Assembly: GCF_000739995.1 (NCBI RefSeq)
Contig: NZ_BBJX01000014.1
Coordinates: 1 to 64,000, forward strand
DNA from: Comamonas granuli NBRC 101663
GTDB taxonomy: Bacteria > Pseudomonadota > Gammaproteobacteria > Burkholderiales > Burkholderiaceae_C
Direction: 5' to 3'
DNA: 64,000 nt
The notes beneath the pieces were generated by a model. That model was not told the origin of the DNA. It did no database searches and saw nothing but the letters and a program-made list of their open reading frames with translations. Each line of letters starts with the position of its first letter. Position 1 is the stretch's first letter. Positions 24,686 to 50,223 of the stretch are shown here, one piece after another. Both the position numbers and the translations under genes were made by a program.

Positions 24686-24744
24686 GATGCTTCTGCAGAC
24701 TCAGAAACAGGCCTGTGCCACCATCCACTGAATTGGTTATTCGC

Positions 24745-26036: not shown

Positions 26037-26069
26037 TTGGTCCTATCGAATGTCCGCGGGTGGCTCTAT
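26037..26069 (+). promoter_or_regulatory. Paired direct repeat, candidate MocR/TauR-type operator
   Basis: TTGGTCCTAT (26037) and GTGGCTCTAT (26060), start-to-start 23, lie 83-115 bases before the ABC operon. The same arrangement occurs at 40060/40083, and CCTATCGAATG is shared exactly. Confidence 0.55.
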
Positions 26070-26151
26070 GTGTAGAGAGGAACATCTAAGCAGAATTTGC
26101 TCCTGATCAATCTTGCGCATCGAAGGTTGGCGCATTTCCAAGGAGACAAAA

Positions 26152-27753
26152 ATGCAAATCCCTCACGGCGCTTCGCGCCGCCGCTTTGCCGTTGCTGCCA
26201 TGCTCGCCGGTGCCCTCTGCTCCCCCTGGGCGGTGCAGGCACAACAAGAAGCCCCCAAGCGCGGCGGAACCCTGGTTGTCGGCTGGACGCAGACCCCCCG
26301 CCACCTCAACGGGGCCGTGCAGTCCGGCGTGGCCACCGCCCTGCCTTCGACGCAGTTGTTCGCCAGTCCGCTGCGCTTCGACGACAAATGGAATCCGCAG
26401 CCCTACCTGGCCGAGAAATGGTCCCTGGCAGAAGACGGCAAGTCCCTGACGCTGCACCTGCGCAAGGACGCCGTGTTCCACGACGGCAAGCCCATCACCT
26501 CGGCCGACGTCGCCTTCTCGATCATGGCCATCAAGGCCAACCACCCATTCACCACCATGATGGGTCCCGTGGAAAAGGTCGAAACGCCCGACGCCCACAC
26601 CGCCATCATCCGCATGGCCACGCCGCATCCGGCCATCCTGCTGGCCCTGTCGCCGGCGCTGTGCCCCATCCTGCCCAAACACATTTACGGTGACGGCCAG
26701 GACCTGCGCAACCACCCGCGCAACGTGACCGATGTGGTGGGCTCCGGTCCGTTCAAATTCGTCGATTTCAAGCCTGGCCAGCGCATCACGCTGGAGCGCT
26801 TCGACAAGTTCTTCCTGCCGGGCAAGCCCTACCTGGACAAGGTCATCATCGACATCACGCCCGACTCGTCCAGCCTGATGCTGGGCTTCGAGCGCGGCAG
26901 CATCCAGATGCTGCCCATGGTGTCGATCTCGACCGACCTGCGGCGTCTCTCCACCAACCCGGCGGTCAACCTCTCGCCCAAGGGCTATGAGGCCGTGGGC
27001 GCGCTGAACTGGCTGGCATTCAACCTCACGCGCAAGCCCTTCTCGGACGTGCGGGTGCGCCAGGCGATTGCCTCGGTGATCGACAAGAAGTTCGTCACCA
27101 AGGCGCTGATGGGAGGCTTTGCCAAGCCGGCCGACGGCCCCATCATCGCCAGCAGCCCGTTCGCGGTCGATGACCTGGTGCGCTACCCCACCGACCTCAA
27201 GAAGGCCGGCGAACTGCTGGATGCCGCAGGCTACAAGGTGGGTGCGAACGGCGAGCGCTTCCGCATGACCATCGACTACACGCCGGGCAACGATGACCAG
27301 CAGAAGACGGTGGCGGAGTACATCCGTGCGCAGCTCAAGAAGATCGGCGTTGTCGCCGAGACGCGTGCCTCGGCCGACTTCCCGGCCTGGGCCAAGCGCG
27401 TGGCCACCAAGGACTTCGACGTCACCATGGACGCCGTGTTCAACTGGGGCGACCCCATCATCGGCGTGCACCGCACCTATCTGTCGACCAACATCAAGCC
27501 GACGGTCTGGACCAACACCCAGTCCTACGCCAACCCGAAGGTGGACGAGCTGCTGAACACCGCGGGCACGGTACTCGACCCCGTCAAGCGCAAGGCCTAC
27601 TACGCGACCTTCCAGAAGATCGTGACGGAAGACCTGCCCATCATCTTCATCAACGAGGTGCCCTACCACACGGCCGCGCAGAAGAAGGTGGTCAATGTGC
27701 CCGCGACGATCTGGGGGCCCTTTGCACCGTACGACGAGGTCTCCCTCAAGTAA
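26152..27753 (+). CDS. ABC transporter substrate-binding protein, family 5 (peptide/nickel type)
   Basis: 533 aa; AAGGAG before the ATG at 26152. The N-terminus has SRRRFAVAAMLAGALC, a Tat-like or Sec signal ending near AQAQ. The mature protein has KRGGTLVVGWTQTPRHLNG, DVVGSGPFKF and FNLTRKPFSDVRVRQAI, standard for SBP_bac_5. These periplasmic proteins bind oligopeptides, opines, glutathione, nickel chelates and other ligands, so the family does not fix the ligand. First gene of an eight-gene plus-strand cluster. Confidence 0.93.
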   Translation: MQIPHGASRRRFAVAAMLAGALCSPWAVQAQQEAPKRGGTLVVGWTQTPRHLNGAVQSGVATALPSTQLFASPLRFDDKWNPQPYLAEKWSLAEDGKSLTLHLRKDAVFHDGKPITSADVAFSIMAIKANHPFTTMMGPVEKVETPDAHTAIIRMATPHPAILLALSPALCPILPKHIYGDGQDLRNHPRNVTDVVGSGPFKFVDFKPGQRITLERFDKFFLPGKPYLDKVIIDITPDSSSLMLGFERGSIQMLPMVSISTDLRRLSTNPAVNLSPKGYEAVGALNWLAFNLTRKPFSDVRVRQAIASVIDKKFVTKALMGGFAKPADGPIIASSPFAVDDLVRYPTDLKKAGELLDAAGYKVGANGERFRMTIDYTPGNDDQQKTVAEYIRAQLKKIGVVAETRASADFPAWAKRVATKDFDVTMDAVFNWGDPIIGVHRTYLSTNIKPTVWTNTQSYANPKVDELLNTAGTVLDPVKRKAYYATFQKIVTEDLPIIFINEVPYHTAAQKKVVNVPATIWGPFAPYDEVSLK

Positions 27754-27768
27754 GCAGGGGCCCAGACC

Positions 27769-28746
27769 ATGCGCGCACTCTCCCACGCGTTCACCCGCCT
27801 GTACCAGGGCGCCGCCCTGGTGCTCGCGGTGGTGGTACTCAACTTCGTGCTCCTGCATGCCGCCCCCGGCGATCTGGTGGAAACCATCGCCGGCGCCAGC
27901 GGGGGCATGAGCGAGGAACTCAAGGCCGAACTGCGCACGCAGTACGGCCTGGACAAGCCCCTGCACACGCAATTGGGCATCTACCTCAGCAAGGTGGTTC
28001 AGGGCGACCTGGGGCACTCGCACTTCTTCAACCTGCCGGTGTCCACCATGATCGGTGAACGGGTGCCCGCCACGCTGCTGCTGGTGGTGACTGCCGTGCT
28101 GGCGGCGTTTGTCTTTGGCACCCTGCTCGGCGTGCTCTCGTCGCGCAAGCCCAATGGGCTGTTGTCGCAGTTCATCAACACGGTGTCGCTGGTGGGCTTT
28201 GCGGCGCCCGTGTTCTGGACGGGCATCATGCTGGTGCTGCTGTTCTCCTCGGTGCTGCCGCTGTTCCCGGTCTCGGGCATGCGCGACATCGACTCGGCCG
28301 GTGCGACCGGGCTGGCCGATGCCCTGAGCGTGCTCCACCACCTGGTGCTGCCGGCCCTGACCCTGGGGCTGATCTACCTGGCGCAGTACAGCCGGCTGGC
28401 GCGCGCATCCATGCTCGATGTGCTGGGCTCGGACTACATCCGGACGGCGCGCGCCAAGGGCTTGTCGCAGCGGGTCGTTATGTACAAGCACGCTCTGCGC
28501 AACGCCATCCTGCCGGTGATCACCATCCTGGGGCTGCAGTTCGGCAACGTGATGGCAGGCGCCATCCTCGTCGAGACGGTCTTCAACTGGCCGGGCCTGG
28601 GACGCCTGGCGTTCGAGTCGGTGCTGCGGCGCGACTTCCCCACCATCCTGGGCGTGCTCTTGTTCTCCTCCATGGTGGTGGTCGTCATGAACCTGCTGAC
28701 GGACTACTGCTACCGCCTCATCGACCCAAGGATCAAGACATCATGA
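27769..28746 (+). CDS. ABC transporter permease (DppB type)
   Basis: 325 aa. N-terminal TM helix with LNFVLLHAAPGDLVE, then QYGLDKPLHTQLGIYL and five further TM helices. The EAA loop is DYIRTARAKGLSQRVVMYKH. Overlaps the next permease by 4 bases. Forms the inner-membrane channel with that partner. Confidence 0.94.
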   Translation: MRALSHAFTRLYQGAALVLAVVVLNFVLLHAAPGDLVETIAGASGGMSEELKAELRTQYGLDKPLHTQLGIYLSKVVQGDLGHSHFFNLPVSTMIGERVPATLLLVVTAVLAAFVFGTLLGVLSSRKPNGLLSQFINTVSLVGFAAPVFWTGIMLVLLFSSVLPLFPVSGMRDIDSAGATGLADALSVLHHLVLPALTLGLIYLAQYSRLARASMLDVLGSDYIRTARAKGLSQRVVMYKHALRNAILPVITILGLQFGNVMAGAILVETVFNWPGLGRLAFESVLRRDFPTILGVLLFSSMVVVVMNLLTDYCYRLIDPRIKTS

Positions 28747-29608
28747 AACCCGACCAAGTCATTGTGGTGGAGCACCCGTGGCGCGAGGCGGTGCGCATGT
28801 TCATGCGCAACCCGTCGGCCATCGGCGGCATGGTCCTGCTCGTGGCCATCCTGGCGCTGTCCCTCATCGGCCCGCTGCTCCTGCCGGTGGACCCGTTCGA
28901 AATCACGGCCGCGCCGCTGACGCCGCCATTGAGCCCCGAAGCCTGGCTGGGCACCGACTACCTCGGGCGTGACGTGCTGGCCACGCTGATCCACGGCGGC
29001 CGCACGACCCTGCTGGTGGGTGTCGTGGCCGCCTTGCTGTCCGTGAGCATCGGCATCACCCTGGGCGCCCTGGCGGGCTATTACGGCGGCCGCATCGACA
29101 GCATTCTGATGCGCGTCACCGAGTTCTTCCAGGTGCTGCCGGCGCTCCTGTTTGCGATGGTGGTGGTGACTCTGTTCTCCCCCAGCCTGCTGACCGTCAC
29201 GCTGGCCATCGGCGTCGTGAGCTGGACCGGCACGGCCCGCCTCACGCGCGCCGAGTTCCTGAAAGCGCGCGGGCTGGAATACGTGCGCGCCGAGCGTGCC
29301 ATCGGAGCGCGTGACTCGCGCATCATCTGGAAAGTCATTCTGCCCAACGCCTTCCCTCCCCTGGTGGTGTCGGCCACGCTGGCGGTGGGTGCCGCCATCC
29401 TGTTCGAGGCGGGCCTGTCCTTCCTGGGCCTGGGTGACCCGAACCAGATGAGCTGGGGCCTGATGATCGGCTCGAGCCGCCAGTACTTCCTCTCGAGCTG
29501 GTGGGCCGTGGCCATTCCCGGTTCGGCCATCTTCATCACCGTACTGGCCGTCAGCCTGATCGGCGACGGCCTGAACGACGCACTCAACCCCAAACTGCGG
29601 GAGCGCTG

Positions 29609-29609
<1 letters not shown>
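28743..29609 (+). CDS. ABC transporter permease (DppC type)
   Basis: 288 aa, about six TM helices. Family marks: [21 protein letters not shown], the EAA loop [20 protein letters not shown] and [16 protein letters not shown]. The start overlaps the previous stop and its stop overlaps the ATPase start (TGATG), indicating tight coupling. Confidence 0.94.
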
Positions 29610-30609
<1,000 letters not shown>

Positions 30610-30613
<4 letters not shown>

Positions 30614-31638
30614 ACACCGCACCATCCCCCCTGCTGTCGGTCCGCGACCTCCAGGTGCACTTCCCGATCGCCGGCAGCGGCTGGCGCCGCTCGACGGAAG
30701 TCGTGAGGGCCGTCGATGGCGTCTCCTTTGACATCGCGCGGGGTACCACCCTGGCCGTGGTGGGCGAGTCCGGTTCGGGCAAGACCACCACGGCGCTGTC
30801 GGTCATGCGTCTGGCCCCCATCACCTCCGGGCAGGTTCGCCTGGGGGACACCCAGCTCGACGAAATCGAGGGCGAAGCGCTGCGCGATGCGCGCAAACGG
30901 GTACAGATCATTTTCCAGGACCCGTTTTCTTCGCTCAACCCGCGCCAGCGCGTCGGCGAAGCCGTGCGTGCGCCGCTGGACCTGATGAAGGTGGGCACGC
31001 CGGAGCAGCGGCGGGCACGCGTCGACGAGTTGTTCGCGCAGGTCGGATTGCGCCCTGAGCAGCAGCACCTGTTTCCCCACCAGTTCTCGGGCGGGCAGCG
31101 CCAGCGCATCAACATCGCCCGCGCACTCGCCACCCACCCCGAGCTGGTGGTCTGCGACGAGCCGGTGTCGGCACTGGACGTGGCCATCCGGGCCCAGATT
31201 CTCAATCTGCTGGTACGCCTGCAGAAAGAGATGGGGCTGACCTACCTCTTCATCTCGCACGACATGGCGGTGGTGGAGCACATCTGCGACGAAATCGCCG
31301 TGATGTATCTGGGCCAGATCGTCGAGCGCGCACCGCGCAAGGCCTTCTTCAGCAATCCGCTGCACCCCTACAGCGCGGCCCTGCTCTCGGCCGTGCCAAC
31401 GGTCAAGGGCGGGCGCGAGCGGGCCGCGCGGCGGCTGCGCCTGGTCGGCGATCCGCCCAGCCCCATCGCTCCGCCCCCCGGCTGCCGTTTCGCGGGCCGC
31501 TGCCCGGCGGCCGAGCCGGAATGCTCGCGCGAGCTGCCGCCGCTGCGCGAGGTGACCCCCGGGCACTGGGTGCGCTGCCGCCGCATCGAGGTGGTGAACG
31601 GCCGTGCCCTGCCCCCCCTGCAACAAGAAGCCGCCTGA
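30610..31638 (+). CDS. ABC transporter ATP-binding protein (DppF type)
   Basis: 342 aa from the ATG at 30610. Walker A GESGSGKTT, Q-loop IFQDPFSSLNPRQ, signature FSGGQRQRINIA, Walker B VVCDEPVSALDV, and a Cys-containing C-terminal extension (GCRFAGRCPAAEPEC). Second ATPase of the importer, as usual for Opp/Dpp systems. The next gene starts four bases after its stop. Confidence 0.95.
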
Positions 31639-31641
31639 AAC

Positions 31642-32853
31642 ATGCCACAAGAAAGCATTCTGATCCGCGGCGCCCGGCCTTGGGGCCTGGCGCACGACGC
31701 CGATGTGCTGATCGACAACGGGCGCATCGCCGCCGTCGGGCCCGGCCTGCAGGCGCCGGGCGCCGGGCGCATCCTGGAGGCCCAGGGTTGCATGGTGCTG
31801 CCCGGTTATGTCGATGCCCACGCGCATGTGGACAAGACCCTCTGGGGCCTGCCCTGGCACCCCCACCAGGCCGGCCCCACGCTGATCGACCGCATCGAGA
31901 ACGAGCAGCGCGTGATGAAGGAACTGCGCATCTCGTCCGAACTGCAGAGCGCGCGCCTGCTGCGCCACATGGTGGCGCGCGGCACCACCCATGTGCGCAC
32001 GCACATCGATGTCGGCCTGGACATGGGCCTGAGCTACCTGCACGGTGTGCTGGCCATGTACGAGGCCCATCGCGACTACATCGACATGGAAATGGTGGCC
32101 TTTCCCCAGACCGGCGTGATGATGCGCCCCGGCACCCTGGACCTGCTGGACCAGGCCGTGCAGGCCGGCGCGCAGGTGCTGGGCGGACTGGACCCGATCG
32201 GCGTGGACCAGAACCCCGAAGGCCAGCTCGACGGCCTCTTTGCCATCGCCGAACGCCGGGGTTGCGCCCTCGACATCCACCTGCACGACCGCGGCGAGGT
32301 GGGTGCGCGCACACTGGAGATGGTGGCCGATCGCATCCGCGCGCTGGGCATGCGCGGCCGGGTCGCCATCAGCCATGCCTTCTGCCTGGGCGGCCTGGAC
32401 GAGGCGCGGCTGGAGCAGATGGTGGAGCTGCTGCTGGAGCACGACATCGCCATCATGACGCACGGCCCGGTGGGCGGCATTCCCTTCCCCCCGGTACGCC
32501 TGCTGGCCGAACGCGGCGTGCGCCTGTTCACCGGGTCGGACGGCGTGCGCGACTGCTGGAGTCCGCTGAACACCGGCGACATGCTGGAGCGCGCCTTCCT
32601 GATCTCGTACCTCAACGGCTTTCGCGATGACCCGGGACTGGAGATCACGCTGCGCATGGCAACCTACGGCGGCGCCCAGCTGATGGGCGTGCAGGACTAC
32701 GGCCTGACCCCTGGCTGCACCGCCGATCTGGTGGTCGTGCCCGCCAGCTGCGCGGCCGAAGCCGTGGCGGCGCACCCGCTGCCGCGCTATGTCCTCAAGC
32801 GCGGGCGCATCGTGGCACAGGATGGCCAGGCCCTGCTGCCGCCGCTCGCCTGA
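31642..32853 (+). CDS. Metal-dependent amidohydrolase, cytosine-deaminase-like
   Basis: 403 aa. The N-terminal beta sandwich ends in MVLPGYVDAHAHVDKT with H60 and H62 as metal ligands. Later HIDVG, DIHLHDRGE, ISHAFCLGGL and FTGSDGVRDCW supply the remaining ligands and catalytic Asp. The layout is that of CodA and N-isopropylammelide hydrolases, which act on C-N bonds of cyclic or acyclic amides; the substrate is not readable from sequence. Operon position after the importer suggests it acts on the imported compound. Confidence 0.85.
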   Translation: MPQESILIRGARPWGLAHDADVLIDNGRIAAVGPGLQAPGAGRILEAQGCMVLPGYVDAHAHVDKTLWGLPWHPHQAGPTLIDRIENEQRVMKELRISSELQSARLLRHMVARGTTHVRTHIDVGLDMGLSYLHGVLAMYEAHRDYIDMEMVAFPQTGVMMRPGTLDLLDQAVQAGAQVLGGLDPIGVDQNPEGQLDGLFAIAERRGCALDIHLHDRGEVGARTLEMVADRIRALGMRGRVAISHAFCLGGLDEARLEQMVELLLEHDIAIMTHGPVGGIPFPPVRLLAERGVRLFTGSDGVRDCWSPLNTGDMLERAFLISYLNGFRDDPGLEITLRMATYGGAQLMGVQDYGLTPGCTADLVVVPASCAAEAVAAHPLPRYVLKRGRIVAQDGQALLPPLA

Positions 32854-32898
32854 CACCGCACCGCCGCCTCCTGCCATTTCCCACCCGTGACGCTTACC

Positions 32899-34554
32899 AT
32901 GACAAAAACGACTGTCTACGCCGCCCGCAAGATCATCACCATGAACCCCATGCAGCCGACCGCCACCCATGTGGCTGTGCGCGACGGCCGCATTCTTGCC
33001 GTCGGCGACCTCGACCGCATGCGTGCCTGGGGCGATGTCGAGGTGGACACGCGCTTTGCCGACCAGGTGCTCATGCCCGGCCTGGTGGAGGGGCATTGCC
33101 ACCTGAAGGAAGGCGGCATGTGGACCATGCCCTACCTGGGCTGGTTCGACCGCCGCGACCCCCAGGGCCGTGTATGGCCCGGGCTGCGCTCCATGCAGGC
33201 GGTGATCGAGCGGCTGACCGAGCTGGACCGGGAGATGCAGCAGACGGGCTGCGCGGCCGATGAGCCCCTGATCGCCTGGGGCTTCGACCCCATCTATTTC
33301 GACAACGAGCGCATGACCGTGCGCCATATCGACCGCGCCTGCGCCACCCGCCCGGTGGTCATCGCCCACGCCAACGGGCATTTGATGAACGTGAACACGG
33401 CCATGCTCCAGCTCGCCGGCATCACGCGCGAGACCGAGATCGAGGGCGTGATGAAGTTCGACGACGGCGAGCCCAATGGGGAGCTGCAGGAGCCCGCGGC
33501 CATGTTCCCGGTGGTGCGCCGCATCGGCAACGCCGGGCTGCTGGCCCCCATGGACGACGACGGCATGGCGGGCTTTGCCGCCATTGCCCGCATGCAGGGC
33601 GTGACCACCGCCACCGACCTGGTCAACCGCCTGGGCGAAGCCGACTGCGCCACGCTGGAGCGTGCCTGTTCCAACCCGGACTACAGCGTGCGCCTGCTGC
33701 CGGCCTTCCAGGCCTTCCATGGCACCCATGGTGCGCAGGACGGCGCCAACCACGTGCGCACGCTCATGGCCGGCAACACCGACCGCCTGCGTTACGGCCT
33801 GGTCAAGATGATGCTCGATGGCTCCATCCAGGGCTTCTCGGCCCGCTTGCGCTGGCCCGGCTACTTCAATGGCGCGGACAATGGCATCTGGGTCACTGCA
33901 CCCACGCAGTTCGAGGCCGATTTCGAGACCTACCACCGCGCGGGTCTGACCATTCATACGCACACCAACGGCGACGAAGCAAGCCTGGTAGCCATCGATG
34001 CCATCGAACGCGTGCTGGCGCGCTACCCCCGTCCCAACCATCGCCACACCCTGCAGCACGGCCAGATGATCGACGCCGCGCTGTTCCGGCGCATGGCCGG
34101 CCTCGGCCTGGGCGTCAACCTGTTCAGCAACCACCTGTGGTACTGGGGCGACCAGCACGCCAGCCTGACGCTGGGACCGGACCGTGCCGAACGCATGAAC
34201 GCCTGTGCCAGCGCGCTGCGCGCCGGGGTGCCGATGGCCATCCACTCCGATGCCCCCGTCACGCCCCTGGGGCCCTTGTTCACCGCCTGGTGTGCGGTCA
34301 ACCGTGTCACCCCCTCCGGGCGCATCCTGGGTGCGAGCGAACGCATCAGCGTCGCCGAAGCCCTGCATGCCGTGACCCTGGGCGCCGCCTGGACGCTGAA
34401 CCTGGACCACGAGATCGGCAGCATCGAATGCGGCAAGAAGGCCGATTTCTGCGTGCTCGACGAGGACCCCCTGTCCGTGGATCCCATGCGGCTCAAAGAC
34501 ATCGGCATCTGGGGCACCGTCTTGTCCGGCAAGCCCTTCGCAGCGCGGCGGTGA
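32899..34554 (+). CDS. Amidohydrolase family 3 (YtcJ-like) enzyme
   Basis: 551 aa from the ATG at 32899 (GTG at 32887 also in frame; neither has a strong ribosome site). MPGLVEGHCHLKEGG gives H66 and H68. HTHTNGDEA and HSDAPVTPLGPLF complete the metal site, and the C-terminus has LDHEIGSIECGKKADFCVL. The family acts on N-acyl and formamide-type bonds. A second amidohydrolase next to a cytosine-deaminase-like one suggests two consecutive hydrolyses. The next gene starts two bases after its stop. Confidence 0.85.
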   Translation: MTKTTVYAARKIITMNPMQPTATHVAVRDGRILAVGDLDRMRAWGDVEVDTRFADQVLMPGLVEGHCHLKEGGMWTMPYLGWFDRRDPQGRVWPGLRSMQAVIERLTELDREMQQTGCAADEPLIAWGFDPIYFDNERMTVRHIDRACATRPVVIAHANGHLMNVNTAMLQLAGITRETEIEGVMKFDDGEPNGELQEPAAMFPVVRRIGNAGLLAPMDDDGMAGFAAIARMQGVTTATDLVNRLGEADCATLERACSNPDYSVRLLPAFQAFHGTHGAQDGANHVRTLMAGNTDRLRYGLVKMMLDGSIQGFSARLRWPGYFNGADNGIWVTAPTQFEADFETYHRAGLTIHTHTNGDEASLVAIDAIERVLARYPRPNHRHTLQHGQMIDAALFRRMAGLGLGVNLFSNHLWYWGDQHASLTLGPDRAERMNACASALRAGVPMAIHSDAPVTPLGPLFTAWCAVNRVTPSGRILGASERISVAEALHAVTLGAAWTLNLDHEIGSIECGKKADFCVLDEDPLSVDPMRLKDIGIWGTVLSGKPFAARR

Positions 34555-34556
34555 TC

Positions 34557-35480
34557 ATGGCGGCGCCGCGCATTCCGTTCACCGTGATTGGCGGTTTTCT
34601 GGGCGCTGGAAAAACCACCCTGCTCAACCGCCTGTTGCAGAACGCCAGCCCCCGGCGGCTGGCGGTGCTGGTGAACGATTTTGGCTCCATCAACCTCGAC
34701 GCGGCAGCCATTGCGGCGGTGCATGGCGACACCATCGCGCTCACCAATGGCTGCGTCTGCTGCTCGATTGGCGACGACCTGAGCCGCGCCCTGATCAGGG
34801 TGATCGAGGCGCACCCCCCTTTTGACGGGATCATCATCGAGGCCAGCGGCGTATCCGACCCCTGGCGCATTGCCCAGCTGGGCATGGCCGCGCCAGAGCT
34901 GCGCCTGGATGCGGTGGTGGTGGTCGCAGACGCCGCCGCGCTGCGGGCGCAGGCGGCCGACCCGCTGCTCGCCGACGGGCTGCGCCAGCAACTGCGGCGC
35001 GCCGACTGGGTGCTGCTGAACAAGGCCGAGCTGCTGGATGCGCAAGCCTTGGAGGATCTCCAGTCCTGGGTGTCGCAGCTCAGCGAAGGCCGGCCTTGCG
35101 TGGCCGCCTCCTATGGCGCGGTGCCGCAGGACCTGCTCACGGGCACGGCCTGGCCCCCTTTCGAACGGCCCGCCCAGACAGACGGCGCCGGCTTCCTCGC
35201 CAGCCAGTTTGAAACCTGGTCGCACCGGCCCGGCGGCAGCTTCCCGTTGGCGGCCTGGCACGCCTGGCTGGCGCAGGTGCCTGCGGGCCTGCTCCGCCTC
35301 AAGGGTTGGGTACAGACCAGCGATGGCGGCTGGTACGAGCTCCAGGTGGCCGGCCTGCGCAGCAGTTGGCAGCCCCTGCACAGCGCCCCGGCACCATCGA
35401 GCACGCTGGTGGCGATCGGCTTGCGCGGACGCCTGCCCCGCCCCTGGCTGGTGCAGATGCCGGGCGGCCCCGGTCACTGA
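34557..35480 (+). CDS. COG0523 / CobW-like GTPase metallochaperone
   Basis: 307 aa. P-loop GGFLGAGKTT (12-21), the metal-binding GCVCC motif (C66, C68, C69), SGVSDPW, and a guanine-specificity-type LLNKAEL. A C-terminal CobW_C-like region carries the last about 100 residues. The family delivers Zn, Co or Fe to client enzymes. It lies directly behind two metal-dependent amidohydrolases and away from the cobalamin genes, so the likely clients are those enzymes and not the B12 pathway (inference). Confidence 0.88.
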   Translation: MAAPRIPFTVIGGFLGAGKTTLLNRLLQNASPRRLAVLVNDFGSINLDAAAIAAVHGDTIALTNGCVCCSIGDDLSRALIRVIEAHPPFDGIIIEASGVSDPWRIAQLGMAAPELRLDAVVVVADAAALRAQAADPLLADGLRQQLRRADWVLLNKAELLDAQALEDLQSWVSQLSEGRPCVAASYGAVPQDLLTGTAWPPFERPAQTDGAGFLASQFETWSHRPGGSFPLAAWHAWLAQVPAGLLRLKGWVQTSDGGWYELQVAGLRSSWQPLHSAPAPSSTLVAIGLRGRLPRPWLVQMPGGPGH

Positions 35481-35536
35481 TCTCCCTCCCCTGCCGGCGC
35501 TCTGCCGGGGCAGCCAGAGCAGCCCCCGCTCCTTCT

Positions 35537-36727
35537 TCAGCGCTGCCGGAGCGAGACCAGCGCCGCCAGCGCCAGCATCACCGGGCCCAGCCACAGACCG
35601 GCGGTCAACTGCCCCGTGGCATCGGCAACCAGCCCTGCCACGATGGGACCTACGGACTGCCCCAGCGAAAACGCCGCCGTCAGCAAACCCAGGCCGACCG
35701 CCAACTGCCGCTCGGGCAACAAGCGCTGGGCCACCAGGCTGATGGCCGCCGGCCCGGCCATGAAGCTGGCACCGAACACACACGCCGAGAGCGCAAGGGC
35801 GGGCAGCGCCGAAGACAGCAGAACGGGCATCACGCCCAGGGCCACGCAGACACTGACCAGGGCAAAGCCCCGTCCCACGCGCAGGCGGGCCAGGCCATGG
35901 CCCCACGCAGGAATGGCCAGCAGCGAGGCCAGTCCCAGCCCGCAGAAGAACAAGGACGTGGCCACACTGCCATGCCCTTGCTGGCGCAGCAGCGCGATGA
36001 CAAAGGTGGTGTAGCCCACGTAGCCTGCACCAAAGAGGCTGTTGGCCGCCAGGCTCGGCCAGAGCCGGCCGAGCACCGAAGGGCCCGGCTGGGTCGGTGC
36101 GGCGGGCGCGGCGGCAGGGCGCAGGCGCCGCGCCGCTGCCGCGCTCACCATGGCGGCCAGCACGGAAGCCGCGCCCATGAGCAGCCAGGCGGTCTGCCAG
36201 CCTGCGGCACTGGTATCGAGCCACTGCGGCAGCAGGCTGCCGGCCAGCACCATGCCCATGCCGGAGCCGGCGAAATACACGGTGAGGGCGCCGGCAGGCT
36301 TGTGCGGCATGGCGCGCGTGGCCAGGCTGGTACCGAGCACAAAGGCGACTGCGGTACTGATGCCCCCGGCAAAGCGCACCAGCATGAACACATGCCAGCC
36401 CTGGAACAGCCCGCTGAGCAGCAAGGCTGCCGCGCTCAGCCACATGCCCAGGATGAAGCTGCGGACTGCACCCCAGCGGCGCGCCAACGGGGCCGCGGCG
36501 ACGGCGCCGATCAGATAGCCCACGCCGTTGGCGGTATTCAGGGCGCCCGCCTGGGACAGGCTCCAGCCCAGGTTCACCTGCATGGCCGGCAGCAGCAGCG
36601 CATAGGCAAAGCGCGAAAAACCCAAGGCGACCAGCGGTGCCAGGGCCAGGGCCAGGACCTGGGGCAGGCCCTGCCAGTGCAGGTTGCGCCCCCCGTCGAC
36701 AGCGGCACGGGTGGAGAAGGCACTCAT
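35537..36727 (-). CDS. MFS transporter, YbfB/YjiJ family
   Basis: 396 aa, about 12 TM helices. GFSRFAYALLLPAMQ in helix 1 is the hallmark of this group, with GYLIGAVAAAPLARRWG in the first loop. Its ATG overlaps the stop of the GntR regulator, so the pair is one transcript running away from the racemase. Substrate unknown. Confidence 0.88.
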   Translation of the reverse strand: MSAFSTRAAVDGGRNLHWQGLPQVLALALAPLVALGFSRFAYALLLPAMQVNLGWSLSQAGALNTANGVGYLIGAVAAAPLARRWGAVRSFILGMWLSAAALLLSGLFQGWHVFMLVRFAGGISTAVAFVLGTSLATRAMPHKPAGALTVYFAGSGMGMVLAGSLLPQWLDTSAAGWQTAWLLMGAASVLAAMVSAAAARRLRPAAAPAAPTQPGPSVLGRLWPSLAANSLFGAGYVGYTTFVIALLRQQGHGSVATSLFFCGLGLASLLAIPAWGHGLARLRVGRGFALVSVCVALGVMPVLLSSALPALALSACVFGASFMAGPAAISLVAQRLLPERQLAVGLGLLTAAFSLGQSVGPIVAGLVADATGQLTAGLWLGPVMLALAALVSLRQR

Positions 36728-37467
36728 TGTTGGGCTCCGAACAATTGCAATAGATCGACATCGACGCTGGGGGGATCCCGCCGCAGCTTGCGCTCGGCGC
36801 TCTGCAGGTGCTCGTCCATCAACTGGCAGGCGCGCTCGGTCTCCCCGGCAGCGATGGCATCGAGGATGGCGCCATGCTCCTCAAAGGAGCATGCGCTGCG
36901 GCCCGGCGCGTCGTACAGCGCTTTCATCAGCGTGGTCCGGGCGACCAGTGCGTTCATGATCTCCTGCAACTCATCGTTTCCCAGCGCGCGCGCGGCTGCC
37001 AGGTGGTACTCGCCCGAGAGCCTGATCCAGCGCGACCGATCGCCCTGGTGGTAAGCCTGGGCCTCGTCCTGCACCAGGCGGCGCAAGCCCGCGATATCGC
37101 CGGGCTTGGCACAGGCGCACAGGCGGCGCACCAAACCGCCCTCGACGAGGCGGCGCACCTCGAACACCTCGCGCATCTCGACCGGGCTGGGCTGGGCCAC
37201 CGATGCGCCCCGGTTGTGCTGCAGCTCCACCACTTTTTCGTTGGCCAGGCGCACCAGCACCCGCCGCAGCAGCGAACGGTTGACGCCGAAGGCTTCGCAC
37301 AGCGGCGTCTCTACCAGCCGCGTTCCGGGTGGTAGCTTTTGTGACAAAACAGCCTCCACAATGGCATCACGCACCCGGATTTCGTCCGCCAGCTCCTGCG
37401 AAGGAGCCGCATCATCCGGGGCTGCCTGAGGGGCAATGGAAGGGGTGTTCTGTTTGGGTCGTGCCAT
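36724..37467 (-). CDS. GntR-family regulator, FadR/FCD type
   Basis: 247 aa from the ATG at 37467 with AGGAGA upstream. N-terminal winged helix: KLPPGTRLVETPLCEAFGVN, then LRRVLVRLANEKVVELQHNRGA. The C-terminal all-helical FCD ligand domain includes EVFEVRRLVEGGLVRR and HGAILDAIAAGE. The gene is divergent from the racemase gene; the AT-rich gap holds a 12 bp palindrome. Confidence 0.92.
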   Translation of the reverse strand: MARPKQNTPSIAPQAAPDDAAPSQELADEIRVRDAIVEAVLSQKLPPGTRLVETPLCEAFGVNRSLLRRVLVRLANEKVVELQHNRGASVAQPSPVEMREVFEVRRLVEGGLVRRLCACAKPGDIAGLRRLVQDEAQAYHQGDRSRWIRLSGEYHLAAARALGNDELQEIMNALVARTTLMKALYDAPGRSACSFEEHGAILDAIAAGETERACQLMDEHLQSAERKLRRDPPSVDVDLLQLFGAQQ

Positions 37468-37564
37468 GGAATGCTCTCCTAACAGGCGGCATGGTGCCAC
37501 GGAATTGTTGACCCATGCGGCGCTCGTCTATATTATGGCAAAGCAATCTATTTTTGTCACAATA

Positions 37565-37576
37565 AATCAATTGATT
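37565..37576. promoter_or_regulatory. Candidate GntR operator
   Basis: AATCAATTGATT, a perfect 12-base palindrome, is in the divergent GntR/racemase gap, nine bases before the racemase ATG. Confidence 0.4.
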
Positions 37577-37584
37577 CACACAAT

Positions 37585-38328
37585 ATGAAGATCCAAATCA
37601 TCAACCCCAACGCCTCGCTCGCCATGACCGAAGAAATCGGCCACGCTGCGCGCCGGGTGGCCGCCCAGGGAACGCACATCATGCTGACCGGCACGGCCAG
37701 CGGCCCGGCCAGCATAGAAAGCGCTTTCGACGAAGCCCTGGCATTGCCCGGACTCATGCAGGCCGTAGAACAGGGCCGCCGGGAAGGCGTGCACGCCCAT
37801 GTCGTCGCGTGCTTCGGAGACCCGGGCCTGCAGGCCGCGCGCGAGGTGGCCGATGCGCCGGTGCTGGGGATTGCGCAGGCTGCCATGCATGCCGCCTGCC
37901 TGCTGGCGCCGCGCTTTTCCGTCATCACCACACTGCAGCGCACCGTCTCCACGGCGGAGCGCCTGGCGCGCCTTTATGGCTTCGAATACCAATGCCGCCG
38001 CGTGCACGCCACCGGCCTGCCCGTGCTGGCCCTGGAGGCAGCCGCTACGGACGACCGGGTATTTGCCCAGGTGCGCGCCTGCGCCGAACGCGCGATCGAG
38101 GAGGACGGCTGCGGAGCACTGGTGCTGGGCTGTGCCGGCATGGCACCGCTGTGCGCGCGCCTGTCCGGCGTCCTGGGCGTGCCCGTGATCGATGGCGTGA
38201 GTGTGGCAGTGAAGCTGGCCGAGGCGCTGAGCGGTGCAGGTCTGTCCGCCAGCAAGCGCGGCGACGGCGCGCGGCCCGAGGCCAAGCCCGTGACCGGGAT
38301 CATGAGCGCCTTTGCCTTGAGCGATTGA
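37585..38328 (+). CDS. Asp/Glu/hydantoin racemase-family protein
   Basis: 247 aa. NPNASLAMT at the N-terminus, C76 in VVACFGDPGL and C183 in LVLGCAGM are the paired catalytic cysteines of the hydantoin racemase branch, which inverts 5-substituted hydantoins or related carbons. Divergent from GntR. No hydantoinase (dihydropyrimidinase-type) is adjacent, so the true substrate may differ. A strong hairpin follows at 38339. Confidence 0.82.
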   Translation: MKIQIINPNASLAMTEEIGHAARRVAAQGTHIMLTGTASGPASIESAFDEALALPGLMQAVEQGRREGVHAHVVACFGDPGLQAAREVADAPVLGIAQAAMHAACLLAPRFSVITTLQRTVSTAERLARLYGFEYQCRRVHATGLPVLALEAAATDDRVFAQVRACAERAIEEDGCGALVLGCAGMAPLCARLSGVLGVPVIDGVSVAVKLAEALSGAGLSASKRGDGARPEAKPVTGIMSAFALSD

Positions 38329-38338
38329 GGCGCGGGTG

Positions 38339-38362
38339 CTGCGGCCCTGCGCGGGGCCGCAG
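38339..38362. terminator. GC-rich hairpin between convergent genes
   Basis: CTGCGGCCC, 6-base loop, GGGCCGCAG. No T tract, so it is a weak or Rho-dependent terminator or an mRNA 3' stabiliser for the racemase transcript. Confidence 0.5.
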
Positions 38363-38466
38363 CGATTGAGTGGCCGCGGCCGTCGGCGCGACGCGCCGGG
38401 CGGGCCCAGGCCCTGTGGGCCGCCACCCCGCAGTGCAAGGCTGCAAGCAGGGATGGCGCCGCCCGA

Positions 38467-39891
38467 TCAAAGGGTTTCGTCGCGCAGGTAGTACCAGTGG
38501 TAGAGAAAGCGCTGGCCAAACCGGCGGAACGGTGCAAAGGCGCGCGAGCGCACCAGATTGAACACGTTCGGATATTCCAGTTCGGAGTTGTAGATGGGCA
38601 GTTCGAACGCCGGCAGGTTTTTGCCGGCGATGCGCTGCGCCATGCGGCGTCCGGCGTGGGCCGAGAAGGACACGCCGTTGCCGCCATAGCCGACTGCGTA
38701 GAACACCGATTCATCCGCATTGGGCTGCACGATGCGCGGCATCATGTCGTGGCTCACGTCCACCCAGCCCCACCACGAGTAGTCGATCTGGATGCCCTTG
38801 AGCGCCGGGAATTTGCGGTGCAGGCCGTCGATGAGCTTGGCCATGTGCACCGGGTTGGGTGCATCGGCTCCGGTGATGGAGCTACGGCTGCCGATCTGGA
38901 CCCGGTTGTCGGGCAGCTTGCGGTAGTAAAAGCGCAGCGTGCGGGTATCGGTGATGACTTCGGTGGTCTTGAAGTTGGTCGCCGCCAGCTCCTGTTCCGT
39001 CAGCGGGCGCGTGACCAGCGAGTTGGACAGAATGGGCATGATCTTGGAATCCAGGCTCCGGTGCATGCCATTGCTGGTATAGCCACCGGTGGCAAAACCC
39101 ACGGCACGCGCCTTGACCGTGCCTCCCGGAGTCTTCAGGTAATGCACACCGTTGCGCGTCTCCATGCCGATCACGGGGCTGGCCGGGTGCACTTTCACCC
39201 CCAGTTCCCGGGCCTTGCGCAGATAGCCGAAGGCCAGTTTCAGCGGATGCACGCCGATGCCGTCGGGCTCGTGCAGCGCGCCGAAGCTCTCGGCGTCGTT
39301 GACATACTCGTCGCGCACCTCGTCCGGGGTGAGCATGCGGGTGTTGTAACCGAAGACCTCGCGCATGACCTTGGACTCGTTGTGCAGGAAGGCCATCTTC
39401 TTCTCGCGGTGCGCGATGTACAGATGCCCGCCCGGCTGGGGCTCGCACTCGGGAAATTCGGCCACCAGGCTCTTGAAGGTGTCGAAGCCCTCGCGAATCT
39501 CGGCGTCGAGCTTCAGTGCGGTTTCCTTGCCCCAGCGCGCGATCCACTGCGAGCGATAGAGGCGGCCGCTGGCGTTCTGGCCTTGCCCGCCGTTGCGGCT
39601 GGTGCAGCCCCAGACGGCCTGGTTGGCTTCAAGCACCGTGGCGCGGATGCCATGCTCGCGCGCCAGAAACAGCGCCGTCGCCAGGCCCGTGAATCCCGAG
39701 CCCACGATCACCACATCGGCATCGACGTCGCCCGTGATCGGGCCATCGTCTTCCGGCGGCTCGCCGGCCGTTCCCACCCAGTAGGTGGGAGCGTAGTTGG
39801 CCCCATGGCCGGGCGATTTCGCCACCAATGGGTCGTACTGCGGATCGTAGGGGCTGCGCATGGAGGCGCGTGGTTGGGCGTGGGCTTTCAT
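38467..39891 (-). CDS. tauY: Taurine dehydrogenase large (FAD) subunit
   Basis: 474 aa from the ATG at 39891 (GGAGA upstream; the frame is open to 40005). NYAPTYWVGTAGEPPEDDG, Rossmann VVIVGSGFTGLATA (G64-G66-G69), WGCTSRNGGQGQ and a C-terminal AVGYGGNGVSFSAHAG mark a DAO-family flavoenzyme. The N-terminal layout is that of TauY, which oxidatively deaminates taurine to sulfoacetaldehyde with cytochrome c as acceptor. It is divergent from tauX, and TRAP and Xsc genes follow; this context is the strongest support. Without context it could be called a gamma-glutamylputrescine oxidase-like enzyme. Confidence 0.82.
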   Translation of the reverse strand: MKAHAQPRASMRSPYDPQYDPLVAKSPGHGANYAPTYWVGTAGEPPEDDGPITGDVDADVVIVGSGFTGLATALFLAREHGIRATVLEANQAVWGCTSRNGGQGQNASGRLYRSQWIARWGKETALKLDAEIREGFDTFKSLVAEFPECEPQPGGHLYIAHREKKMAFLHNESKVMREVFGYNTRMLTPDEVRDEYVNDAESFGALHEPDGIGVHPLKLAFGYLRKARELGVKVHPASPVIGMETRNGVHYLKTPGGTVKARAVGFATGGYTSNGMHRSLDSKIMPILSNSLVTRPLTEQELAATNFKTTEVITDTRTLRFYYRKLPDNRVQIGSRSSITGADAPNPVHMAKLIDGLHRKFPALKGIQIDYSWWGWVDVSHDMMPRIVQPNADESVFYAVGYGGNGVSFSAHAGRRMAQRIAGKNLPAFELPIYNSELEYPNVFNLVRSRAFAPFRRFGQRFLYHWYYLRDETL

Positions 39892-40059
39892 GCCGGTCTC
39901 CGGGTAGTTCAAATGGGCCTTTTTTGCGGCTGGGTGATGCATGCACTTCGGCACACCCAAAGGAATGCCGAGGAGTACGGCGAGGTTATCCAGGGCCATC
40001 GCCACATCGTTAGCGCCACTGCGCGGGTTTTGATAGAGCCAGCAAGCCGCTGCCTGTGT

Positions 40060-40092
40060 CTGGACCTATCGAATGCACTTTGCTGGTTCTAC
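40060..40092 (+). promoter_or_regulatory. Paired direct repeat, candidate TauR operator
   Basis: CTGGACCTAT (40060) and CTGGTTCTAC (40083), start-to-start 23, lie in the tauY/tauX divergent gap. The first matches the TauR box of Rhodobacter capsulatus (CTGGACYTAA, from memory) at 9 of 10 positions. Confidence 0.65.
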
Positions 40093-40201
40093 GAGCCCAC
40101 GAAGTGCGTAACTACCATTCGTTCGACCATCACACCAATGGCGGCTTCGCCATCGCGACGGCGAAGCAGAGATTGACCGGAAGCGAATCAAAGGAGACGA
40201 A

Positions 40202-40600
40202 ATGACTGAAAGAAGCGACAGCGTGAGCGTGCAGTTCCTCATGGACTTCGGCGCCGCCTGGAACCGCCACGACATCGAGGCCCTGATGTCGTTCATGGCC
40301 GACGACTGCGAGTTTCACGCCGTGGCCGGCCCGGACCTCATGGGCCGAAGCTACATCGGCCGTGAAGCCGTGCGCGAGGGCTTTCAACTCGCCTGGCAGA
40401 CCTTCCCCGACGCCGCCTGGCTCGACGGCGTGCACTTCGTGCACGGCGACCGCGGGGTTTCCGAGACCACGTTCAAGGGCACCAAGCTCGACGGCTCGCG
40501 GGTCGAGGCCCGCATGGTCGATGTGTTCACTTTCCGGGACGGAAAAATCGCGGTCAAGAACGCCTACAGAAAAGACCGCCCCCCGATCAGCGCACGCTGA
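40202..40600 (+). CDS. tauX: Taurine dehydrogenase small subunit (SnoaL/NTF2-like)
   Basis: 132 aa with GGAGA before the ATG. SnoaL-like alpha/beta barrel: FGAAWNRHDIEALMSFMADDCEFHAVAGP, later MVDVFTFRDGKIAVKNAYRK. TauX partners are small proteins of this type beside TauY; on its own the fold says little. It leads the TRAP operon, 29 bases before the solute-binding gene. Confidence 0.75.
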   Translation: MTERSDSVSVQFLMDFGAAWNRHDIEALMSFMADDCEFHAVAGPDLMGRSYIGREAVREGFQLAWQTFPDAAWLDGVHFVHGDRGVSETTFKGTKLDGSRVEARMVDVFTFRDGKIAVKNAYRKDRPPISAR

Positions 40601-40629: not shown

Positions 40630-41622
40630 ATGACTTTCAAGAAAACCATGGTGATGCACCTGGTGGGCGCAGCCTCTCTGCTTGCCACCGGTGCCTGGGC
40701 AACGACGTTCAAGGTGGCCGTTGGCGACGCCCAGGGCGGAACCCAGTGGGAGCTGGCGACCAAGTTCAAGCAGTCCTTCGAACAGAAGACCGGCGGCAAG
40801 CACAAGCTCGACCTCTTTCCCAACGGCCAGTTGGGCAGCGAGGAAGACACCATCAACAATGCCGCCATGGGCACGCTGGACTTTTCCATTCTGGCGATCA
40901 ACAACGTCACCCCTTTCTCGCCCACGGTCGGCGTGCTGACACTGCCCTACGTCATTCAGAGCGCCGAGGACGCCAAGAAGCTCACCTTGGGTGAGGTCGG
41001 CAAGGATCTGACGGCCAGCACCCTGCGCGATGCCAACGTGCGCATCGTCGGCTGGGCCTACTCGGGCTTTCGCGTGCTGACCAACTCCAAGAAGCCCGTG
41101 AAAACCGTGGCCGACCTGCAAGGCCTCAAGATCCGCGTGCCCAAGAACGAGATCATGATCGCCAGCTACCAGGCCTGGGGCATCAATCCCACGCCGATGT
41201 CCTGGGGCGAGACCTTCACCGCCCTGCAGCAGCGCGTGGTCGATGGCCAGGACAACCCGTACATCACCATCTCGGCGATGAAGTTCAACGAGGTGCAGAA
41301 GTACATTACCAACATCCGCTACGTGTTCTCGCTGGAACCCTTGATCGTGAGCGAGTCGGTGTTCAAGAAGCAGCCGGCCGACGTGCAGAAGGCCATCCTC
41401 GAAGCAGGCGCCGAAGCCTCCGAGCACAGCTACCGCTGGCTGCTGGAGACCGAAGACAAGATCAAGAAAGACCTGACCGCCAAGGGCATGCAGATCACGG
41501 ATGCGGCCGATGGCGAGAAAGAGTTCATCAGCAAGGCCACGGCCACGGTGTGGCCGAAGTTCTACAACAGCATCGGCGGGAAAGACAAGCTCGACAAGGT
41601 GCTGAAGGCGCTGGGTCGCTGA
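40630..41622 (+). CDS. dctP: TRAP transporter substrate-binding protein (taurine-type)
   Basis: 330 aa. Signal peptide ending near GAWA. DctP marks: NGQLGSEEDTINNAAMGTLDF, GLKIRVPKNEIMIASYQAWGINPTPM and ALQQRVVDGQDNPY. By locus it should bind taurine, corresponding to the TauK component of TauKLM. A 9 bp hairpin follows, as often seen between a binding-protein gene and its membrane genes. Confidence 0.9.
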   Translation: MTFKKTMVMHLVGAASLLATGAWATTFKVAVGDAQGGTQWELATKFKQSFEQKTGGKHKLDLFPNGQLGSEEDTINNAAMGTLDFSILAINNVTPFSPTVGVLTLPYVIQSAEDAKKLTLGEVGKDLTASTLRDANVRIVGWAYSGFRVLTNSKKPVKTVADLQGLKIRVPKNEIMIASYQAWGINPTPMSWGETFTALQQRVVDGQDNPYITISAMKFNEVQKYITNIRYVFSLEPLIVSESVFKKQPADVQKAILEAGAEASEHSYRWLLETEDKIKKDLTAKGMQITDAADGEKEFISKATATVWPKFYNSIGGKDKLDKVLKALGR

Positions 41623-41634
41623 GACGGGCCTGGA

Positions 41635-41666
41635 CAGGACGGCGGCGCCATGGGGCGGCCGTCCTG
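41635..41666 (+). promoter_or_regulatory. Intra-operon hairpin after the TRAP binding protein
   Basis: CAGGACGGC, 14-base loop, GCCGTCCTG, without a T run. It probably stabilises or partly terminates the mRNA so the binding protein is made in excess. Confidence 0.55.
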
Positions 41667-41742
41667 CCGGTCAGTGTTAGCGTTGCGCAATTGCATGCCC
41701 CCAACCCGCGGGGCAGGCCCTGTTTTTCCCTGAGAGAACGCC

Positions 41743-42291
41743 ATGTCCAGCCCTCGTTCCTTCCTCAAGTGGCTCAACCATCTGGAGACCATGCTGTGCG
41801 AGCTCCTGCTCGCCGCATTCGTCCTGCTGTTGTTCGCCCAGATCGTCGCCCGCCAACTGTTCCAGTACTCCATCGCCTGGAGTGAGGAGCTGTCCACCTA
41901 CATGTTCGTGTGGTTCGCCTACCTGGGCGCCGTGGTGGCGGCCAAGATGTCGGCCCACAACCGCGTCACCTTCCATTTCCAGTTCATGCCCAAAGCCATG
42001 GCCAAGGCCATGCTCGTGCTGGCCGATCTGCTGTGGGTGGCCTTCAACAGCTATTTCGTCTACCTGAGCTACGACTTCGTCTTCCACCGCATGAACCTGT
42101 TCTGGAAGTCCCAGACCCTGGGCGTGCCGATGAAGTACCTGTACATGATCCTGCCGGTTGCGTTCACGCTCATGTCGATCCGCATTCTCTACAACGTGTA
42201 TCTCACGGTGTTCAAGGGCGTGGAGCTGATCGACCCCGAGGCAGCGGAAATCGAAAAACTCAAACAACTAGCGGCACGGGGCAATGCCTGA
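41743..42291 (+). CDS. TRAP transporter small membrane subunit (DctQ type)
   Basis: 182 aa with four TM helices. FAQIVARQLFQYSIAWSEELSTYMFVWFAYLGA is the conserved core of DctQ (shown here only as a marker region, residues about 28-60). Stop is 17 bases before the large subunit. Confidence 0.9.
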   Translation: MSSPRSFLKWLNHLETMLCELLLAAFVLLLFAQIVARQLFQYSIAWSEELSTYMFVWFAYLGAVVAAKMSAHNRVTFHFQFMPKAMAKAMLVLADLLWVAFNSYFVYLSYDFVFHRMNLFWKSQTLGVPMKYLYMILPVAFTLMSIRILYNVYLTVFKGVELIDPEAAEIEKLKQLAARGNA

Positions 42292-42308
42292 CGGCTGAGG
42301 AGACAAAC

Positions 42309-45307: not shown

Positions 45308-46081
45308 TCAGGAGCGCGCGAGGTAGTTGGAGTAGACCAGGCCGGTGCCAGCAAGAACCAGCAGCGCTGCCGCCACCCGGGTCGTGGTCCGCGGTGACAG
45401 GCCCAGAGGATAGCGCTGCTGGATGCGGTGCACCAGCAGCACCACAGGGAAGGACAGCGCGATGTACAGCAGCGAGCGCCAGGTGAAGCTGCCCGTGGCT
45501 GCAATAAAGGCCAGGCGCACCACCTGCCCAATGGAAAACACCAGGAAAAGGCACTGGTGTATCACCCGCTGCGGCAGGGGCTGGCGGTAGAACAGGTAGA
45601 CCAGGGGCGGGCCGGCGGTGGAGAACAGCCCCCCCATGAGGCCGGACAGCAGGCCCGTGACCCGGAACACCCAGGGTGGGGACATCTGGCGCCAGGGAAC
45701 CGGCTGGACCACCATGGACAGCGCCGTCAGCAGGATGAAGCCACCCAGCACGTACTTGAGCACATACAGCGCCTGGCCGCTGAGCCAGATCAGCAGGGCC
45801 GCCCCTCCCATCACCCCGACGATGCTGGGCAGGATGGCGGGCCGCACGGGGTGCCACTCCCGGCCCAGCGGATGCGCACGGAAGTAGGCGGCCGTCTGCA
45901 CCAGGGTGATGACGCTGATGGCGTTGGTCGCCTCATCCAGCGGCACCAGATCGAACGTACCGATCAGCCCGATGAACAGCAGCGAGAAGGCAAAACCGGT
46001 CAGCGCCTGCACGTAGGTGGCCAGTGCCATGCACACGGTCACGTACCACCAGGTCAGCAAGGAGACACCAAAAAACGACAT
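45308..46081 (-). CDS. tauE: TauE/SafE-family sulfite exporter
   Basis: 257 aa, about eight TM helices. QALTGFAFSLLFIGLIGTFDLV and GLLSGLMGGLFSTAGPPLVYLF are the two repeated halves of TauE/SafE. It should export the sulfite released by Xsc; family members also move other organosulfur anions. Last of the xsc-pta-exporter run. Confidence 0.88.
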   Translation of the reverse strand: MSFFGVSLLTWWYVTVCMALATYVQALTGFAFSLLFIGLIGTFDLVPLDEATNAISVITLVQTAAYFRAHPLGREWHPVRPAILPSIVGVMGGAALLIWLSGQALYVLKYVLGGFILLTALSMVVQPVPWRQMSPPWVFRVTGLLSGLMGGLFSTAGPPLVYLFYRQPLPQRVIHQCLFLVFSIGQVVRLAFIAATGSFTWRSLLYIALSFPVVLLVHRIQQRYPLGLSPRTTTRVAAALLVLAGTGLVYSNYLARS

Positions 46082-46149
46082 GGTCAGTCACCAGGAGGCC
46101 GTGAAAAGGCGCGCGCCGGGGCCCGTCCCCGGCGCACGGTGCACAGGCA

Positions 46150-48200: not shown

Positions 48201-48277
48201 GGGGATTCTCGATGCGTGGGGAGGGCATGCGCCCCGCGCGCCTCAGGCACGCGGGGCGTGGGCTCAGGACGTGAACG

Positions 48278-50089: not shown

Positions 50090-50108
50090 TGCTATCTCCT
50101 TGGAAAAT

Positions 50109-50202: not shown

Positions 50203-50223
50203 ACTCGAAAAAAGAAACTTCAT

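What the first reader, a model, noticed from the sequence alone, without database searches (positions are those of the whole stretch)
26037..40092. Identical paired operator architecture before the ABC/amidohydrolase operon and before tauXY
TTGGTCCTAT + GTGGCTCTAT (26037, 26060) and CTGGACCTAT + CTGGTTCTAC (40060, 40083) are direct pairs with exactly 23 bases start to start, and both first units continue into the same 11-mer CCTATCGAATG. The best unit matches the known TauR box (CTGGACYTAA, from memory) at 9/10. MocR regulators bind such direct pairs. If so, the MocR gene at 43643 controls an operon 9-17 kb away that nobody would link to taurine from annotation alone.
Basis: partly seen in the sequence, partly recalled or inferred. 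Interest (0 to 1): 0.75.

Follow-up and report, generated by a model that had tools for sequence, protein, structure and literature searches.

The report
TauR-controlled N-acetyltaurine uptake operon
The paired DNA boxes are real, conserved switches that most likely let the taurine regulator also turn on a second operon, which by its relatives imports N-acetyltaurine and cuts it to taurine; this extends known taurine biology rather than opening a new kind of system.

Summary
Freeing the gap to 1-31 adds nothing. A matrix trained only on relatives' tau sites ranks these three far above the rest of the window.

The pair before the ABC operon is conserved in position and spacing in part of the relatives (9 of 26 loci; 14 of 46). 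TANNNT starts 20-22 bases after box 2 in 51 of 74 sites.

The operon is not an anonymous Dpp operon: homology and gene order match naaABB'CC'-naaS-naaT, N-acetyltaurine uptake and hydrolysis.

"Nobody would link it to taurine" is wrong: a 2016 study already put OppABCDF, COG523 and COG1574 in Comamonadaceae TauR regulons. Identifying those genes as naa is in no held paper I found. DNA binding, taurine response and substrate are inferred.

The parts
26037..26069 (+). TauR operator pair before naaA: boxes 26037-26046 and 26060-26069
   Evidence: matrix score 28.3 with window held out
26091..26096 (+). candidate -10 (CAGAAT, starts 22 bases after box 2; does not fit TANNNT)
   Evidence: inference
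26152..27753 (+). naaA-like substrate-binding protein (SBP_bac_5)
   Evidence: 51% to the P. aminovorans protein in naaA position
27769..28746 (+). naaB-like permease
28743..29609 (+). naaB'-like permease
29609..30613 (+). naaC-like ATPase
30610..31638 (+). naaC'-like ATPase
31642..32853 (+). AH1: second amidohydrolase (PRK05985 subfamily); seen in 2 of 24 relative stretches, some of which end before its place
32887..34554 (+). naaS-like amidohydrolase (Amidohydro_3)
   Evidence: 50% over 546 aligned columns to the P. aminovorans protein in naaS position
34557..35480 (+). naaT-like CobW-family GTPase / metallochaperone
38467..39891 (-). tauY-like FAD oxidoreductase (start 39891 inferred from a GGAGA ribosome site)
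39983..39988 (-). candidate -10 of tauY (TAACCT)
   Evidence: matrix score 30.4
40060..40092 (+). TauR operator pair before tauX
   Evidence: matrix score 38.9
40113..40118 (+). candidate -10 of tauX (TACCAT)
40202..40600 (+). tauX-like SnoaL/NTF2 protein
40630..43649 (+). TRAP transporter DctP, DctQ, DctM (tauKLM-like)
43643..45148 (-). MocR-subfamily regulator, TauR candidate
   Evidence: GntR + Aminotran_1_2; groups with MocR proteins encoded near tauY
45308..50089 (-). tauE-like exporter, YeiH-family exporter, pta-like, xsc: rest of the taurine pathway; no TauR pair found before xsc

Best explanation
The three pairs are activator sites of one TauR-type MocR protein, encoded at 43643-45148. 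A head-to-tail dimer binds two direct boxes 23 bp (about two helical turns) apart on one face of the DNA. Box 2 lies next to where the -35 element would be, and the -10 starts 21-22 bases after it, so TauR probably recruits RNA polymerase in place of a good -35. With taurine (or its PLP adduct) as inducer it would switch on tauY, tauX-TRAP and, from 26037, naaABB'CC'-AH1-naaS-naaT, which imports N-acetyltaurine and splits off taurine that feeds TauXY and Xsc. Shown here: sites, spacing, -10 register, conservation, gene identity by homology and order, linkage in relatives. Inferred: binding by this MocR, activation, inducer, substrate.
For: Three pairs genome-wide, all here. A matrix from 21 sites at relatives' tau loci puts the three window pairs at 38.9, 30.4 and 28.3, next best 0.8. 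Strict pairs in 12 of 18 genomes that carry the MocR orthologue; 15 of the 17 sites lie in the fetched tau stretches. Upstream of naaA: 9 of 26 relative loci at spacing 23, at most 1 locus at any other spacing from 12 to 44; 14 of 17 loci without adjacent LysR, 0 of 29 with it. TANNNT at +20 to +22 in 51 of 74 unique sites, shuffle mean 2.2, max 8. tauY in 19 and MocR in 20 of 24 naaA stretches. naa identity. In one Caballeronia and one Burkholderia record, where a symporter gene replaces the ABC genes before naaS-naaT, the matrix finds a pair before the operon (25.5 and 24.2; next best 6.9 and 8.3, leaving aside the divergent Caballeronia pair at 23.5).
Against: 17 of 26 naaA loci fail the pair test; 11 of these have tauY directly upstream, so may be read from the tau promoter, but 6 do not. 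Some of the 9 that pass score low on the matrix (G336 -2.3, G224 9.3). Six of the 18 genomes with the orthologue have no strict pair anywhere; the matrix finds only variants there. The reversed control gave 9 hits in the same 18 genomes against 17. A second group of MocR proteins is encoded beside naaA in many relatives and its boxes look similar, so the box alone does not name the binder. The window naaA site scores lowest of the three and lacks a TANNNT. xsc has no pair. The one alphaproteobacterial tau locus scanned (P. aminovorans) and the naaA genes with an adjacent LysR gene show no such pair. In one search lineage and regulator are confounded, and in Burkholderia a LysR gene and a pair occur together. 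Sites from related genomes are not independent.
Confidence: 0.8

Rival explanations
1. The 26037 pair is a chance resemblance or a fossil, and the ABC operon is run by the adjacent LuxR-type gene at 24682-25869.
For: The LuxR-type gene ends about 280 bases upstream of naaA; the site has the lowest of the three scores and no TANNNT -10.
Against: Score 28.3 against 0.8 for the best other position in the window; same position and spacing in part of the relatives; no LuxR match printed beside naaA in 26 relative loci or 24 stretches.
Confidence: 0.06
2. The sites are read by a different MocR protein, as may happen in relatives where a second MocR (about 45% identical) is encoded beside naaA.
For: Second-group MocR genes lie near naaA in many relatives with similar boxes.
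Against: The window's genome has one hit at E<=1e-120 to this MocR; against the PdxR model this gene scores 361 bits and the other MocR-like genes 252 or less.
Confidence: 0.08
3. Same regulation, different substrate: the transporter takes up another taurine amide or a peptide, and AH1/naaS act on that.
For: Transporter is of the Dpp/Opp type; AH1 is an extra amidohydrolase; PMC5320631 calls its transporter oligopeptide-type.
Against: Gene order and homology follow the naa set of R. pomeroyi as listed in PMC4334477, by way of P. aminovorans.
Confidence: 0.25

Closest known systems
TauR regulon of Comamonadaceae (Suvorova and Rodionov 2016, PMC5320631; section 14 read, passages elsewhere)
   Same: MocR activator, direct-repeat operator like CTGGACYTAA, tauXY, tauMLK, OppABCDF with COG1574 and COG523 genes
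   Different: That text calls the transporter oligopeptide-type and suggests a GABA link; here the set is matched to naa. Their site lists and tables were not seen (supplements not available).
naa genes of Ruegeria pomeroyi SPO0657-SPO0664 (PMC4334477, passages) and the Paracoccus aminovorans locus
   Same: ABC transporter of same type and order, amidohydrolase naaS, metallochaperone naaT
   Different: No LysR gene beside the window operon; a TauR pair instead; an extra amidohydrolase AH1; naaS-naaT lie downstream on the same strand
TauR of Rhodobacter capsulatus and Sinorhizobium meliloti (PMC4254191 passages; Wiethaus 2008 not held, seen only as cited)
   Same: MocR protein beside taurine genes, activator
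   Different: Their sequences were not fetched. The P. aminovorans tau-locus MocR is 44% identical and that locus shows no 23-bp pair

Membership tests
TauR (MocR subfamily) | GntR-type HTH fused to an aminotransferase-like domain | tested here: met
TauR (MocR subfamily) | encoded beside taurine dissimilation genes (tauXY, xsc, pta, tauE) | tested here: met
   16 of 18 orthologues have a tauY match within 8 kb
TauR (MocR subfamily) | direct-repeat operator like CTGGACYTAA before target genes | tested here: met
   best window box 9 of 10, some boxes of relatives 10 of 10
TauR (MocR subfamily) | binds DNA, PLP-dependent, activates on taurine | not testable with these tools
   none
naa N-acetyltaurine operon | ABC transporter naaABB'CC' in order | tested here: met
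   51-66% to P. aminovorans proteins, same order
naa N-acetyltaurine operon | naaS amidohydrolase | tested here: met
   50% identity over 546 aligned columns to the P. aminovorans protein; R. pomeroyi NaaS itself not available to compare
naa N-acetyltaurine operon | naaT metallochaperone | tested here: met
   (42%)
naa N-acetyltaurine operon | LysR regulator naaR adjacent | tested here: not met
   no match to the P. aminovorans LysR printed in the window, nor in the printed Achromobacter loci; I treat this feature as variable, not defining
naa N-acetyltaurine operon | hydrolyses N-acetyltaurine | not testable with these tools
   none

The most novel reading that the evidence does not exclude
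In Burkholderiales TauR has become the regulator of N-acetyltaurine scavenging as well as taurine breakdown, in place of or beside a LysR regulator like the NaaR of alphaproteobacteria, and its operator follows naaS-naaT even when the transporter is swapped from ABC to sodium symporter; the promoters share one strict layout: box, 23 bp, box, 21-22 bp, TANNNT.
Probability: 0.65. Interest if true: 0.5.

Novelty: new member of a known kind. Interest (0 to 1): 0.4.

Why it matters
It ties two published threads together: the OppABCDF/COG1574/COG523 members of TauR regulons, so far explained only by a suggested GABA link, and the naa genes for N-acetyltaurine. That gives a substrate and a testable promoter rule to operons that automatic annotation calls dipeptide transport, and it suggests a regulon that keeps its operator while the transporter and the neighbouring regulator change.

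Tried and rejected
Rejected: chance origin; LuxR control (no conserved neighbour printed); the GntR, MFS and racemase genes at 35537-38328 as parts of the system (no match printed beside tau or naa); a TauR pair before xsc (best score -3.6 in 50090-50500). A looser genome scan (extended pattern, up to 3 mismatches) gave 11 hits against 17 in the control; besides the three known sites (0, 0 and 2 mismatches) one other hit has 2 mismatches, on contig C16, and was not examined. The P. aminovorans, Phaeobacter and first Caballeronia stretches gave no pair by regex; pairs were found by matrix in a second Caballeronia stretch and a Burkholderia stretch. A PDB search with naaS gave two distant uncharacterised hydrolases. 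Rows dropped before counts: matches under 35-50% coverage; MocR matches under 330 residues, so of four other MocR-like loci of the own genome only one entered the tree; sites under matrix score 10; 34 of 80 loci without a naaA match. The output was cut; its table was seen whole, its alignment in part. One search printed the ids of 16 of its largest group of 27.
Full report
1. Observation. The strict pattern TGGNNCTA-N15-TGGNNCTA matches three places in the 3.5 Mb genome, all in this window, with no match of the reversed control; none of 100 shuffles of the window had any. Letting the gap range over 1-31 bases returns the same three, all with gap 15, against 23 control matches. The pattern was drawn from two of the pairs after the fact; the third, at 40010-40042 on the minus strand, was not used to define it and serves as an independent test. 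In a relatives sample of 60 genomes, own included, 3 have a match; the two others were not examined.

2. Anatomy. The 310-base gap between tauY (minus, inferred start 39891) and tauX (plus, 40202) holds two pairs, one facing each gene. The remaining pair starts 115 bases before the ABC gene at 26152. Domain scans give SnoaL (tauX), FAD oxidoreductase (tauY), TRAP DctP/Q/M, a GntR-aminotransferase (MocR) protein, tauE, YeiH, pta and xsc: a full taurine dissimilation locus.

3. A matrix without the window. From 21 sites at tau loci of relatives I built a 33-base matrix. On the window it ranks 40060 (38.9), 40010 (30.4) and 26037 (28.3) first; the fourth position scores 0.8. With a stronger pseudocount the 26037 site scores 28.6 and the maximum in 53 kb of other held sequence is 14.2. 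Relatives' boxes include exact CTGGACCTAA and CTGGACTTAA, the consensus that PMC5320631 quotes for R. capsulatus TauR.

4. The MocR gene. Orthologues of at least 62% identity were found in 18 genomes, own not counted, of 299 searched; 16 of the 18 have a tauY match within 8 kb. Strict pairs occur in 12 of these 18 genomes; 15 of the 17 sites lie in the fetched tau stretches, while the reversed control gave 9 hits. In the other six genomes the matrix finds variants in the fetched stretches, with CA for TA in box 1, the best of each genome scoring 16.5 to 30.8. A tree groups the window protein with these 18 (fork of 19 rows, 100/99), apart from a second group of about 45% identity encoded near naaA in other relatives; the root is a midpoint and some long rows are of unsure place.

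5. The ABC operon in relatives. The binding-protein gene has close homologues (E<=1e-180) in 24 other genomes of 399 searched. In the 24 stretches around it tauY is present in 19 and a MocR gene in 20; in 15 it follows tauY within about 300 bases, in the order MocR, tauX, tauY, binding protein, permeases, ATPases, naaS as far as the stretch reaches (G375 and G423 depart from this). Of 26 loci, 9 carry a pair within 300 bases upstream; shuffles averaged 0.012 and never exceeded 1 in 2000 rounds; other spacings from 12 to 44 gave at most 1. Two of the nine score low on the matrix (G336 -2.3, G224 9.3). Of the 17 without, 11 have tauY directly upstream, and 6 have not (G095, G267, G119, G427 and the second copies in G153 and G375). 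AH1 was seen in 2 of 24, some stretches ending before its place. The LuxR-type neighbour is not printed beside these genes.

6. What the operon is. The P. aminovorans relative of the binding protein (51.5%) lies in the order GTP-binding protein, amidohydrolase, LysR, binding protein, two permeases, two ATPases. PMC4334477 lists the same order in R. pomeroyi as naaT, naaS, naaR, naaA, naaB, naaB', naaC, naaC', N-acetyltaurine genes (passages). The window amidohydrolase is 50% identical to the P. aminovorans one, and the window has a CobW-family naaT match at 34557-35480 that the finding does not mention. R. pomeroyi itself could not be fetched.

7. Named relatives. Of 80 loci from one scan of reference genomes (best 80 of 134 kept), 46 hold naaA with enough upstream sequence: 14 of 17 without an adjacent LysR gene carry the pair, only at spacing 23, and 0 of 29 with an adjacent LysR gene do. 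The 14 are 13 Achromobacter and one Allopusillimonas locus, so far from independent; the ids printed for the 29 are mostly Paracoccus, roseobacters and other alphaproteobacteria, so lineage and regulator are confounded. In a Caballeronia record a sodium symporter replaces the ABC genes and both divergent promoters, tauXY and symporter-naaS-naaT, carry pairs by matrix (23.5, 25.5); in a Burkholderia multivorans record a pair (24.2, by matrix only) precedes the symporter-naaS-naaT operon although a LysR gene is adjacent.

8. Promoter layout. In 74 unique sites TANNNT starts 20, 21 or 22 bases after box 2 in 51 (2, 34 and 15), shuffle mean 2.2, max 8; all other offsets up to 54 together hold 6. 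The window's tauX (TACCAT) and tauY (TAACCT) fit; naaA has CAGAAT at the same place, which does not. Box 2 thus lies against the -35 position, which suits an activator.

9. Literature. PMC5320631 (section 14 read, passages elsewhere) had already put OppABCDF, COG523 and COG1574 genes in Comamonadaceae TauR regulons and suggested a GABA link; its main text does not mention acetyltaurine or naaS. That COG1574 and COG523 are the amidohydrolase and CobW families is from memory. Searches for acetyltaurine with TauR found one paper, the R. pomeroyi annotation, with MocR none, and naaS with N-acetyltaurine three, of which I saw passages of two and the listing of one. This covers only the held open library. 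The C. necator work on N-acetyltaurine is known here only from a reference list and memory.

10. Verdict. Real, conserved and ordinary in kind: a further instance of a predicted TauR regulon member, with a sharper identity (naa), a third operator and a fixed promoter layout.

Noticed in passing
50090-50250 and 50161-51051: xsc lacks a TauR pair; its upstream has the palindrome GGAACAAATCGTTCC and a divergent IclR-family gene, which may control xsc-pta separately.
   Followed up: partly
51044-53747: CobS- and CobT-like chelatase genes lie next to the IclR gene and xsc; a cobalt chelatase and an AAA ATPase gene also sit between naaT and xsc in Caballeronia.
   Followed up: no
31642-32853: AH1, a second amidohydrolase inside the naa operon, seen in 2 of 24 relative stretches; role unknown.
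   Followed up: partly
35537-38328: MFS, GntR-family and Asp/Glu racemase genes sit between naa and tauY and are not printed beside them in relatives; perhaps an insertion that parted the two operons.
   Followed up: partly
G267 and G336: Two MocR proteins in one genome, one near tauXY, the other divergent from naaA: a possible split of the regulon after duplication.
   Followed up: no
L172-L221 around 18 kb: Several Achromobacter loci carry a second conserved pair about 3 kb beyond the MocR gene; what lies behind it was not identified.
   Followed up: no
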